The translations under genes and the position numbers were made by a program. This document shows, in pieces, positions 6,001 to 26,769 of a DNA stretch of 64,000 nucleotides (its first letter is position 1; every line of letters starts with the position of its first letter). Source of the stretch: Liolophura sinensis (taxonomy: Eukaryota; Mollusca; Polyplacophora; Chitonida; Chitonidae); NCBI RefSeq assembly GCF_032854445.1, contig NC_088302.1:13077338-13141337 (forward strand), given 5' to 3'. A model generated the notes under the pieces. That model was given only the letters and a program-made list of their open reading frames with translations. It searched no databases and was not told where the DNA came from.

Positions 6001-7651
6001 GACTGGGCATTAGAGCGAAATTGTTTTCTCTTTCTCGTTTTCCATAAATCTGGTCAGTGCTATCAATCTTCAAAATATATTTAAGTCCATGTGATAATTA
6101 CTACTGATATCTTTTACAGGTAATTGCTGGACAAATGGTACACACTATGGAGACGGGGGAGAGTACGCCACACGTCTGCCAAGCTGCTGGGTCGCCATAT
6201 GTAACAACGAAGAAAAGAGAGTCACAGTAGCCACTCCGTAAGTACCGTACCTCTTCCTCGCCCCACCCCACAGGCCGCGCCCTCAATTTTTCCACCTCCA
6301 TTCAAAGTGATTTGGGATCATTATATGGTGGCTGTCTATAGTCACAGTGTCAGCTCCAGATGTCAAGAGGAAACCGGACTTGAAGGATTGATGAAAGGTA
6401 ACTGTGAGGGCCCAGTATTTAAGTATGTAAAATAAAGTTAAACTTCATGCGCCGAAGGGCAGACAGTTTCTCGATCCACCGTCCAAGGTCACAACCTGCA
6501 TCACCAACTGTCGGGATGATTTGAGGAAGTTGATAAAGTACTATACTTAAAGCCATATTTACACCTTTAAAAGAAAACTGGGGAAATAATTCGTAATTCT
6601 ACATGCTAAGACATCTCATAAACAGCATTAAGAGTTCAAGATGCATTGAAAAATCCTTTAATGTCGGGTCGAACTACACCAAGGCGATATCAAGTAGCGA
6701 ATTGTAGCGAGTAACTCACCTACTTACCTGGAATAAGAAAGCCTAGACCTATAGACTGGTTGACCATCTTATAAACACACGTGGGGTTATTATGGGGTTT
6801 TACGTCGTACTTAACAATTTTTCAGTCATATGACGACGAGCACTCATTAGCGAAGTAAACTAATCTACTAATCTACTAATCTGACGTAATACTTCTGTAT
6901 TATCATATTTTCTGTGTGATGAGAAATATAATTAGTTTATTGCGGTAAAGTAGTTTGTTGTTTATGACACACTTCTTCTGTTATCCGAACAGAACACTTT
7001 ATTAATGTTAACAGGGTTACGTTGCCATATCAATAGCATAACATAACATTGTGTTGTATTAGACCTAATAAAATGTCGTGAAGCATTATGCAGAAAACAA
7101 ATTAACAAATTACTCCTTACACAACATTATGTTAAATTTAACACATTAGGTTTTACACACTATTATGAAAATTTAGCATTACTTTCTACACAACATTATG
7201 TTATATTTGACACATTGATTTTTACCAAATATTATGTCTAGTTTAACAGAAAAATTTAAACAGGACATTAGGTTAAATTTGATAGATTATTTTTTTACCA
7301 AATATTACATTCTTTTTTAAGAGATTACTACACAATAGTATGTGTTAAATTTATCACATTAGTTTTTATACTATGTAATGTTAAATTTAACAGATTAGCT
7401 GTTACAATGTAGCCATTTGTCTCATTACCAGGTGTACAGCAGGGCCAGACATCATGTACGGGAATGAGGAGTTGACCAGTCTGATTAGTCGTCACTGTTA
7501 CCCCTCCGCCCGTGGGGAACTCCCTGGGAACCAGTGCTGCGGGGGTTACCCAATTTGTGCCCATGAGGGAAAGAACAGGGAACATTTTAACATCACTAAT
7601 TACCTAAAGGTCATGTTTGACTGGCAACAAGGTGTGTTTAACTATTACTAA
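3080..7651 (+). CDS. Secreted single-domain VWC-type cysteine-rich protein (3 exons)
   Basis: Exons read as 3080-3182, 6120-6237 and 7432-7651 give 146 residues. Junctions are GTAGGT/TTTTACAG and GTAAGT/ATTACCAG, in phases 1 and 0-plus-2, and the frame stays open across both. Residues 1 to ~26 form a signal peptide with a hydrophobic core after MTTRMSR. The mature chain has eight Cys at 37, 57, 62, 75, 96, 109, 110 and 116, including the CC pair followed by GGYPIC, and one N-glycosylation site (NIT, 127-129). Eight cysteines in this order, instead of the ten of a full VWC domain, fit the single-domain VWC family, whose arthropod member Vago is an antiviral signal; other members are of unknown role. 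The C-terminal ~30 residues after the last Cys are not part of the usual domain. AATAAA follows 22 bases after the stop. Family call is by cysteine pattern only. Confidence 0.8.
3183..6119 (+). other. Intron 1 of the VWC-type gene
   Basis: The intron is 2.9 kb. It holds a short SINE-like piece at 5484-5540 (B-box-like GTCCAGTTCATGCTGACTTC region) and no supported exon. Open frames at 3625-3837, 4254-4550 and 5105-5404 are short and show no recognisable protein. Confidence 0.6.
6796..6850 (+). repeat. Fragment of the GTCGTACTTAA repeat
   Basis: Reads GGGGTTTTACGTCGTACTTA and continues ACAATTTTTCAGTCATATGACGACGAG, the same left end as the copy at 32713. It lies in intron 2 of the VWC-type gene. 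Confidence 0.75.
7100..7410. repeat. Imperfect 36-38 bp tandem repeat in intron 2
   Basis: About eight diverged units built on ACACAACATTATGTTAAATT followed by TAACACATTAGTTTTT. The last unit ends 22 bases before the exon 3 acceptor. The core GTTAAATTTAACAGATTAG also occurs in the ends of the palindromic element at 8164-8403, so the array may derive from a terminal repeat. Confidence 0.7.
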
Positions 7652-7984: not shown

Positions 7985-8163
7985 AACCCCAAAACAACGT
8001 CCAAGACAAACCACCGACGAAATATGGAAGTATATGAAGTATAAACCGACGGATTTATGCAAAGTGAAACGGCCAGTGGATTTCAATAATGTTGGAAAAA
8101 CGCACAAAAATGCTTTAGGCGAATGAATGAAATTAGTATCCAAATCGTGTATACCACGATGCA
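7985..8163 (+). repeat. Dispersed repeat R, copy without insertion
   Basis: Contains ACAAACCACCGACGAAATAT, TTTATGCAAAG, GATGTTGGAAA-like and GGCGAATGAATGAAATTAGT blocks in the same order as 26350-26615. The same blocks are split at 9181-9239 and 10993-11110. Together these show the uninterrupted form of the repeat that hosts the foldback-like element. Confidence 0.65.
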
Positions 8164-8403
8164 ACACTCCAAAAACTTTTCTGTTCATTTTAACAGAAAG
8201 TCTGTTGGCTGGGTGATGCTAGAATGTATTCTGTGTTATATTCAACATAATATATTGTCAGTCTAATAGAATCCTTATGTTGAATTGACAGAGTATTTGT
8301 GCTCTATGTAACAGAATAATCTGCTGCAATAACAGAATACATTCCAGCATCACACGGAAAACAGACTTTCTGTTAAATTTAACAGATGTTGTTTGAGAGT
8401 AGT
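8164..8403. mobile_element. Palindromic MITE, family 1
   Basis: A ~240-bp element whose two ends are inverted copies of about 70 bases. The left end reads ACACTCCAAAAAC then CTGTTCATTTTAACAGAAAG, GGGTGATGCTAGAATGTATT and CTGT. The right end reads the reverse complement (AATACATTCCAGCATCAC, AACAGACTTTCTGTTAAATT, TAACAGAT). Related copies are at 30433-30670 and 43509-43727. There is no coding capacity, so mobilisation would need a transposase from elsewhere. Confidence 0.75.
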
Positions 8404-8984: not shown

Positions 8985-9239
8985 TTTCTCTATCTACAAA
9001 GAACAGCTCAACCATGCTGGCTATCTTTCCGTCACTAACGTGCGGGTGGTCCTCCCACCATAATGCTGAGGCGAAAAATGCGGTGTCCATGCGTCGAAAC
9101 AGACATTCATATACCAACCGTCGACCAGTAAGAATGTCCGTGGTGAATAATCGCAAGGCCACTTCCCAAATACGACGTATCACACAAACCACCGAAGAAC
9201 TAAGAAAGTACATAAAGTATACGAAAATTAGACAGAATC
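8985..9239 (+). repeat. Repeat R, left part, interrupted at 9239
   Basis: GCGTCGAAACAGACATTCAT through ACACAAACCACCGAAGAACT matches 26355-26475. The match stops at GAATC (9235-9239) and resumes at GAATCATGCAAA (10988), where the uninterrupted copy at 26503 reads GAATCATGTAAA. Confidence 0.7.
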
Positions 9240-9262
9240 TATGGAAGGCGAACCCCGCCAAA

Positions 9263-9540
9263 AATTAAATCTCTCAAATGAAATCAGCATCTCCCAAACG
9301 AAACAACCATCTGCCAAACCGAACAAGCATATCCCAAGTCAAACAAGCATTTCCTAAACCGAATAAACATCTCACAAATCAAACAAACACCTCTTGAACG
9401 GAACAAGCATCTTCCAAATCAAGCGAGCATCTTCCATATCGAATAGACATTTCCTAAACCAAGTAAGTATATCTTAAACCAAACAAAGGCGTATATGCAT
9501 CTGCCAAGCGGAATAAGCATGTCCCGGATAAAACTAAGTG
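9263..9540. repeat. Left minisatellite arm of the foldback-like element
   Basis: Roughly 20-22 bp degenerate units built on AAACAAGCATCTCCCAAACC, about a dozen of them. It is the reverse complement of the theme in the right arm. Confidence 0.8.
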
Positions 9541-10269
9541 AAAGAAGCATCTTTCACCAACAAACAGAGTTCGCTTTTTGGCACCTGAAAATAGGGGAGG
9601 TAATTAACAGGACTGGGTAAATGAGTTCAGTAATCAAACATTGCTAACCCGCTCGGTCTTGTGAGACAATCTATAACGAAATGTCTTTAATTATGCATAC
9701 GACACTGTATTTAATGTGCCTAAAAGTAGCTCACCATGTGATTAAATTCAGGTGTTTGCATGTCCCATTTTAATTTTAATAGACGTATTTTACTGGGGTG
9801 GGGAACAGGTTATGGTTCGAGTCTTTCTACATTTAATTTGTGATTACTGTTGCAATGTTATGTAGTCTGTGTCACTCTTGGGCTAACCTAGTTAGCACAT
9901 ACCGTCTTTTCGAGCAACAAAGTAGCATACTCACTGCAGAATATTGAACTTGGACCATGGGTATTTCAGGGAAATCCTGTCGACTGATTGGTGGAGTGAG
10001 GCGAGAAAGTATATGCTAAAATAAAACAAACACTGCAGTTTGGATGCACGCTAAACATTTAACCTCTAACGTGTCAAATTATATTGAGTGAAATTCTACT
10101 GAAAAAAGGGTAACCAGGCGATCAGTTTTCTCCAACATGTTGTCAGTGTGCTTGCTGGTGGAGTCGCCAATCGTATAAAATATACATGCTACAACCATCA
10201 TTGTTGAAGAACAAGAGAGACCTCAGTTTCTTGGATGATACTTGTTCTATGAACATTGTTTCTTCTACA

Positions 10270-10970
10270 TAGCCTAGTTCGGGAGATGCATATACGGTTT
10301 AGAAGATGCTTGTTTGCCAGACCTTTATTCCGCTTGGGGGCTGCTTATATTGTGGACCTTGCTTTGGTTTGGGAGATGCTTGTTTGTTTTGCAGATGCTT
10401 ATTCGATTTTGGAGATGCTTGTTTGGTTTGGGAGATGCTTCTTTGATTTTCTATGGTATGGCCATAGATGCTTGCTTGGTTTGGGAGATGTTTATTTGAT
10501 ATGGCCATAGATGCTTGCTTGGTTGGGAGATGTTTATTTGGTATGGCCGTAGATGCTTGCTTGGTTTGGGTGAAGTTTATTTGGTATGGCCATAGACGCT
10601 TGCTTGGTTTGGGAGATGTTTATTTGGTATGGCCATAGACGCTTGCTTGGTTTGGGAGATGTTTATTCGGTATGGCCATAGACGCTTGCTTGGTTTGGGA
10701 GATGTTTATTTGATATGGCCGTAGACGCTTGCTTGGTTTGGAAGATGTTTATCTGGTATGGCCATAGACGCTTGCTTGATTTGGGAGATGTTTATTTGAT
10801 ATGGCAGTAGACGCTTGTTTGGTTTGGGAGATGTTTATTTGATATGGCCGTAGATGCCTGTTCGGTTTGGGAGAGTCTTTTTTGGTTTGTGAGATGCTTA
10901 TTTGCTATGGCTGTTGAGGCTTATTTAGTTTGTGAGATGCTCATTTAATTTGGGAAATATAGTTTTGGCT
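10270..10970. repeat. Right minisatellite arm of the foldback-like element
   Basis: The outer and inner parts use a ~20-bp unit (GGTTTGGGAGATGCTTGTTT). The centre, about 10450-10860, has been amplified as a 43-bp composite joining TGGTTTGGGAGATGTTTATT with TGGTATGGCCATAGACGCTT plus GCT, nine to ten times. This arm is more than twice as long as the left arm. Confidence 0.85.
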
Positions 10971-10992
10971 CTGTTCGCCTTCCACAGGAATC

Positions 10993-11110
10993 ATGCAAAA
11001 AGAAGCAGTCAGCAGTTTTCAACGATGTTGGAAAGACGCAAGTTATGTTCTAGGCGATTGTGTGAAATCAGTTAGACGAATTAGACGCTACCATGAAGCA
11101 GACCGCCACC
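10993..11110 (+). repeat. Repeat R, right part, resumed after the insertion
   Basis: AAAGAAGCAGTCAGCAGTTT, then CAACGATGTTGGAAAGACGC and GTTCTAGGCGATTGTGTGAA, corresponds to 26510-26590. The open frame 10993-11196 on this strand is a by-product of the repeat. Confidence 0.6.
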
Positions 11111-26349: not shown

Positions 26350-26615
26350 GTAAGAATCTATGCGTCGAAACAGACATTCTTATACCAGCCGTCAGTCAGA
26401 ATGGACGTTCAGGATCAATAATTGAAAGCCAAATATCGGATCGACCTTTAACACAAACCACCAAAGAACTATAAGAAAGTATACTAAATACGAAATTAGG
26501 TTGAATCATGTAAAGAGAGAAAGTCAACAGTTTTCAATGATGTAACCGGAAACACGCAAAGAATGTTCTAGGCGACTGAGTGAAATCAGTATTCAAATCG
26601 TGTACCATGACAGCA
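26350..26615 (+). repeat. Dispersed repeat R, uninterrupted copy
   Basis: ATGCGTCGAAACAGACATTC through ACACAAACCACCAAAGAACT and GAATCATGTAAA to GTTCTAGGCGACTGAGTGAA is continuous here. It gives the pre-insertion structure of 8985-11110 and starts shortly after a SINE. Confidence 0.7.
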
Positions 26616-26769
26616 CAGAAATTGTCGACAATCAAAATATATGTACCTCTGTTGAGCTTTGATAGCGCAGCTCCTAATGATCCTGGGTCTGGAAGAGAAA
26701 CGCTTCGTCTTTTCGGGACAATCGCTTGTGTCATGACAGACCCATACATTGATTCTAAAAGTTACTGTT

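What the first reader, a model, noticed from the sequence alone, without database searches (positions are those of the whole stretch)
9235..10992. Foldback-like element with minisatellite arms, caught with its empty site
Both ends are inverted (TGGAAGGCGAAC / GTTCGCCTTCCA), both arms are tandem arrays of the same ~20-bp unit in opposite orientation, and GAATC is present on each side. The host repeat is continuous at 26503 (GAATCATGTAAA) and, more divergently, at 7985-8163. This is the foldback architecture seen in Drosophila, here in a probable mollusc, with direct evidence of insertion.
Basis: partly seen in the sequence, partly recalled or inferred. Interest (0 to 1): 0.75.

Follow-up and report, generated by a model that had tools for sequence, protein, structure and literature searches.

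The report
Fold-back transposon with repeat-array arms
This is one old copy of a small family of jumping DNA whose two ends are mirror-image arrays of a 20-base repeat; uninterrupted copies of the host repeat show exactly where it landed, and its signature suggests a different transposase from the one behind classic fold-back elements.

Summary
Window 9240-10986 is a DNA-transposon copy with ~50-bp terminal inverted repeats (TATGGAAGGCGAAC...), opposed arms of one 20-bp unit, and a unique core. It interrupts an abundant interspersed repeat R: joining the flanks restores R, and 18 examined uninterrupted R copies run through the site.

Two corrections. The target duplication is 6 bp, not 5 (AGAATC/GGAATC; R consensus GGAATC). 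Of 16 paired ends, 5 have perfect 6-bp duplications, the window has 5 of 6 bases, ten have 0-4; none is perfect at 3-5 or 7-12 bp. And the signature is not that of Drosophila FB-type (Mutator) or Galileo elements: TAYGG..CCRTA ends, inverted repeats over 30 bp and 6-bp duplications are the published IS3EU signature.

44 of 51 examined sources carry these ends. No transposase was recognised in 30 ORFs scanned with Pfam, and no transposase locus examined carries these ends. The 7.1-kb copy is long because of ~5 kb of extra DNA.

Verdict: a non-autonomous foldback family, probably moved by an IS3EU-type transposase; a new variant of a known kind.

The parts
9234..9239 (+). left target-site duplication AGAATC (R consensus GGAATC; one change)
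9240..9289 (+). left terminal inverted repeat, about 50 bp, starts TATGG
   Evidence: terminal profile
9269..9517 (+). left arm: tandem array of the ~20-bp unit (consensus CATCTCCCAAACCAAACAAG)
9560..10260 (+). unique core; pieces shared with other copies (the 9560-9850 part has 19 genome matches); the stretch 9851-9896 replaces longer sequence present in several other copies
10277..10955 (-). right arm: the same unit in opposite orientation, largely as a 43-bp period (20-bp unit plus 23-bp variant unit)
10937..10986 (-). right terminal inverted repeat, about 50 bp, starts TGTGG read inward
10987..10992 (+). right target-site duplication GGAATC (matches R consensus)
9086..9239 (+). host repeat R, part left of the insertion (includes the left duplication)
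10987..11072 (+). host repeat R, part right of the insertion
26350..26620 (+). uninterrupted copy of R in the window (empty site)
7988..8151 (+). diverged uninterrupted copy of R (GGATTT at the site)

Best explanation
A non-autonomous cut-and-paste DNA transposon of foldback architecture. A transposase supplied in trans recognises the ~50-bp ends (and perhaps the arrayed 20-bp units as extra binding sites), excises the element and inserts it through a 6-bp staggered cut, here at GGAATC inside repeat R. The arms lengthen and shorten separately, by slippage or unequal exchange. Termini and duplication length point to an IS3EU-type transposase. Shown: the family, ends, arms, 6-bp duplications and empty site. 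Inferred: the kind of transposase, the role of the arms, and how arm length changes.
For: 60 ends at E up to 0.01 in 44 of 51 sources. Perfect 6-bp duplications in 5 of 16 pairs, only at n=6; 0 of 238 mismatched pairings perfect at 6. Empty site in 18 examined R copies. 364 units in 15 copies, 0 after shuffling, with unequal arms in one copy (e.g. 42 and 1 in L017, 4 and 29 in L005). 41 of 60 ends are TAYGG, 49 begin TA, 7 begin TG, matching IS3EU/GingerRoot as described in PMC10045372 (passages) and PMC12730594 (passages). The arms pair with each other in a single-strand fold (no shuffled control available at that length).
Against: No transposase bearing these ends was found, so IS3EU rests on ends and duplication length alone. 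Ten of 16 pairs lack a good duplication (0-4 of 6), and 19 of 60 ends are not TAYGG, including the window's right end (TGTGG). The 60 ends include segmental duplicates, so they are not all independent. Unit identity within arms, between arms and between copies is alike (0.794, 0.777, 0.782), which gives no support for arm-by-arm expansion; the units were selected by similarity, so the test is weak.
Confidence: 0.65

Rival explanations
1. A foldback transposon moved by a different superfamily that also makes 6-bp duplications (Dada makes 6-7 bp by recall, or an undescribed group); the TATGG ends are coincidental.
For: No transposase found with these ends; 19 of 60 ends differ from TAYGG; the searched IS3-type models found no matching element.
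Against: Ends, inverted-repeat length and duplication length all agree with published IS3EU.
Confidence: 0.25
2. A Mutator-type (FB, Tetris) or P-type (Galileo) foldback as in Drosophila.
For: Same architecture: long inverted arms with internal tandem repeats; most foldbacks seem to belong to Mutator (PMC4079207, section 17).
Against: Tetris has 8-10 bp duplications and Galileo 7 bp (passages); here 0 of 16 pairs are perfect at 7, 8, 9 or 10 bp and 5 at 6 bp.
Confidence: 0.06
3. Not a transposon: a minisatellite that was inverted and spread only by segmental duplication.
For: Some copies do share outer flanks: window and L001; L003, L010 and L047; L008 and L052; L033 and L034; L050 and L051.
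Against: Copies in unrelated flanks carry their own 6-bp duplications, ends are conserved over ~50 bp, and R is restored when the flanks are joined.
Confidence: 0.02

Closest known systems
IS3EU superfamily (with GingerRoot)
   Same: TA..TA ends, TAYGG..CCRTA in fungal families, inverted repeats over 30 bp, 6-bp duplications (passages of PMC10045372 and PMC12730594)
   Different: No transposase found here; arms are long arrays of a 20-bp unit, which the passages seen do not describe for IS3EU
Drosophila foldback elements (FB, Tetris; Mutator)
   Same: Long inverted arms with internal tandem repeats, non-coding copies, no autonomous partner found for Tetris either (PMC4079207, section 17)
   Different: 8-10 bp duplications and ~220-bp repeats in Tetris; here 6 bp and 20-bp units
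Galileo (P superfamily)
   Same: Long internally repetitive inverted repeats; arms of one copy differ in repeat number; chimeric copies lack matching duplications (PMC3573991 passages); arm repeats bind its transposase according to the title of PMC3688188 (listing)
   Different: 7-bp duplications and a known P-type transposase
Sea urchin TU elements
   Same: Inverted repeats with an outer part made of short tandem units (recalled)
   Different: 8-bp duplications (recalled); one search returned only the Tetris paper, so this was not tested
Oyster satellites CgiSat35 and CgiSat47
   Same: Tandem repeats in a mollusc annotated as matching IS3EU (table in PMC8268682, passages)
   Different: Monomers of 690 and 129 bp; no foldback structure described in the passages seen

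Membership tests
Foldback-architecture DNA transposon | Long inverted arms made of internal tandem repeats | tested here: met
   arms pair
Foldback-architecture DNA transposon | Dispersed copies with target-site duplications and an empty site | tested here: met
IS3EU | 6-bp target-site duplication | tested here: met
   5 of 16 pairs perfect, only at 6 bp; R site confirms GGAATC
IS3EU | TA..TA ends (TAYGG..CCRTA) | tested here: met
   41 of 60 ends TAYGG, 49 TA, 7 TG. The window's own right end is TGTGG, an exception
IS3EU | Terminal inverted repeats over 30 bp | tested here: met
   ~50-bp profile matches both ends
IS3EU | IS3EU-type DDE transposase in the element or in an autonomous partner with the same ends | tested here: inconclusive
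   None found; the models searched may not cover IS3EU, and the scan was partial
Mutator-type foldback (FB, Tetris) | 8-10 bp target-site duplication | tested here: not met
   0 of 16 pairs perfect at 8, 9 or 10 bp
Galileo / P superfamily | 7-bp target-site duplication | tested here: not met
   0 of 16 pairs perfect at 7 bp

The most novel reading that the evidence does not exclude
Foldback architecture arose independently in the IS3EU lineage, a further lineage beside Mutator and P, with an array of 20-bp units serving as a many-site landing platform for the transposase.
Probability: 0.5. Interest if true: 0.5.

Novelty: new variant of a known kind. Interest (0 to 1): 0.4.

Why it matters
Foldback structure has been proposed to evolve independently in different transposon lineages, yet most known cases seem to be Mutator, with exceptions such as Galileo (PMC4079207, section 17; PMC3573991 passages). 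A family with IS3EU-type ends would add an independent case and make it testable whether arrays of short subterminal units are a general route to mobile, non-coding elements. The R empty sites also give a clean marker of an old insertion and of later segmental duplication.

Tried and rejected
Five-base duplication: rejected; 0 of 16 pairs perfect at 5 bp, 5 at 6 bp.

Longer member with a transposase: L001 (C8:13049558-13056693, 7,136 bp) looked like one. Element sequence stops near L001 1764 and resumes near 6845, with an imperfect inverted repeat at 2000-2025 / 6698-6723 inside the extra DNA, so a nested insertion is likely. Two ORFs there, one straddling the start of the extra DNA, gave no credible Pfam hit.

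Transposase in the copies: 118 ORFs of 100 aa or more were listed in L001-L034 and 24 in L042-L058. I scanned 29 of these 142, plus one 92-aa ORF. Over the cut-off there were only zf-CCHC in L002 and Mab-21 in two ORFs of L023; the weak hits (best E 0.013) were all under cut-off. Many of the 112 left out read as array frames, judged by eye.

Autonomous partner: sought by terminal pattern, terminal DNA and models PF24764, PF13683, PF13333. PF24764 gave 5 matches at 4 places, all fetched: three with frames broken or decayed, and contig C536. PF13683 gave 14 matches; I examined 4 (C536 and three that read by eye as LTR retrotransposons) and left 10 unfetched. PF13333 gave none. The 7 loci show no terminal match (best E 0.8). 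At L035 a 10-bp TATGGGCTAC inverted pair with flanks matching 4 of 6 surrounds an rva_4 relic; possibly chance, not used.

R as tRNA-derived or other known RNA: 0 Rfam matches at E up to 0.1 in 6 of the 16 fetched copies.

Bias: the 16 R copies came from the best 40 scored of 4,897 first-look candidates for an uninterrupted query; they show that empty sites exist, not what fraction of R copies is empty.

Odds: best-explanation confidence stands at 0.65.

Full report
What is there. Window 9240-10986 is a 1,747-bp element. Its outer ~50 bases are inverted copies, TATGGAAGGCGAAC... on the left and TGTGGAAGGCGAAC... on the right; 20 of the first 24 agree. Inside are two arrays of one ~20-bp unit in opposite orientation around a unique core. 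The right arm has a 43-bp period repeated about ten times, which is the 20-bp unit plus a 23-bp variant; that variant occurs in 16 of 51 sources, 0 in shuffled sequence. Folded as single-stranded DNA, 9240-10739 pairs left arm with right arm (no shuffles at that length).

The host site. The flanks belong to R, an interspersed repeat of at least ~255 bp: a search with the uninterrupted window copy 26350-26620 gave 4,897 first-look candidates, of which 40 were scored. The joined flanks align unbroken to 26357-26590 and 7988-8137. In an alignment of 16 fetched R copies, 2 uninterrupted window copies and the joined flanks, the 18 uninterrupted copies run through the site, consensus GGAATC then ATGCAAAG. 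So the target was GGAATC; the right duplication (10987-10992) keeps it, the left one (9234-9239, AGAATC) has one change. The fetched copies were chosen from hits to an uninterrupted query, so they do not measure how many R copies are empty.

The family. A 27-base terminal pattern with up to 3 mismatches occurs 40 times, 0 for the reversed control. I fetched 51 loci chosen from the searches; L042 and L015 overlap and were joined, which with the window makes 51 sources. Of these, 44 have an end at E up to 0.01, 60 ends in all; the 7 without are L002, L044, L046, L048, L056, L057 and L058. Several share outer flanks and so descend from segmental duplication: window and L001; L003, L010 and L047; L008 and L052; L033 and L034; L050 and L051. 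L002, about 16 kb upstream of the window copy, also lies in R but lacks the outer end.

Six-base duplication. Of 16 inward-facing pairs, 5 are perfect at 6 bp (L001 GGAATC, L007 GAGTAC, L013 CGAAAC, L018 TATAAG, L021 CCTTCA), the window has 5 of 6, and the other ten have 0 to 4 of 6. No pair is perfect at 3-5 or 7-12 bp; 0 of 238 mismatched pairings are perfect at 6. L001 shares the R site with the window, so four perfect cases plus the R site are independent. Pairs without a duplication may be old, chimeric (as described for Galileo, PMC3573991 passages) or wrongly paired; two rest on an end with E above 0.01 (L023, L055).

Arms. 364 units at up to 5 mismatches were found in 15 copies, 0 after shuffling. 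Arm sizes in one copy differ: 42 and 1 (L017), 4 and 29 (L005), 21 and 7 (L013), 55 and 23 (L018). Unit identity within arms, between arms and between copies is alike, so that test does not support arm-by-arm expansion. Small derivatives exist: L022 545 bp, L021 714 bp, and L055 65 bp with one weak end.

Coding capacity. Of 142 ORFs of at least 100 aa listed (118, 24) I scanned 29, and one shorter ORF, with Pfam: no transposase; zf-CCHC in L002 and Mab-21 in two ORFs of L023 were the only hits over cut-off. The 7.1-kb copy L001 has about 5 kb of extra DNA in its core. Genome searches with PF24764, PF13683 and PF13333 led to 7 fetched loci, none with these ends; 10 of the 14 PF13683 matches were not fetched. 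Absence here is not proof of absence.

Which transposase. IS3EU is described with TA..TA termini and usual 6-bp duplications, GingerRoot with 6 bp and mostly TA..TA, occasionally TG..CA (PMC10045372 passages); fungal IS3EU with inverted repeats over 30 bp ending TAYGG..CCRTA and 6-bp duplications (PMC12730594 passages). Here 41 of 60 ends are TAYGG, 49 begin TA and 7 TG. Tetris (8-10 bp, PMC4079207 section 17) and Galileo (7 bp) do not fit. I think an IS3EU-type transposase moves this family but do not file it as a proven member.

Literature. In the held library 'IS3EU' and 'foldback' occur together in one paper (PMC8268682), where the passages show a table entry and a reference title. The listings showed no IS3EU foldback by title or abstract start; most subscription papers are not held, and Repbase was not searched.

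Verdict. Observation confirmed with a 6-bp correction; interpretation partly supported; new variant of a known kind; moderate interest.

Noticed in passing
L033 (C1:87722300-87727300) and L034 (C1:87838950-87843950): Two copies of the family lie in opposite orientation about 112 kb apart with 98% identical outer flanks: an inverted segmental duplication that carries the element; ectopic recombination between copies is possible.
   Followed up: partly
window 8180-8386: A second inverted-repeat element just left of R's diverged copy region: arms 8180-8234 and 8332-8386, 55 nt, 87% complementary, 97 nt apart; MITE-like.
   Followed up: partly
L038 (C536:1500-10000): A 22.8-kb contig with an IS3-type transposase match and ORFs that look bacterial by eye; probably a contaminant or symbiont contig.
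   Followed up: partly
L023 1677-2351 and 3726-4286: Two ORFs with Mab-21 nucleotidyltransferase matches close to a family end at L023 446.
   Followed up: no
L052 773-2353 (minus) and L008 422-1808 (minus): Beside the duplicated ends in L008 and L052 lie long ORFs (527 aa in L052) with acidic tandem repeats and reverse-transcriptase-like stretches by eye; no Pfam match at E up to 0.01.
   Followed up: partly
window 26350-26620 and genome-wide: R is an unclassified, very abundant interspersed repeat (4,897 first-look candidates); no Rfam match in 6 copies.
   Followed up: partly
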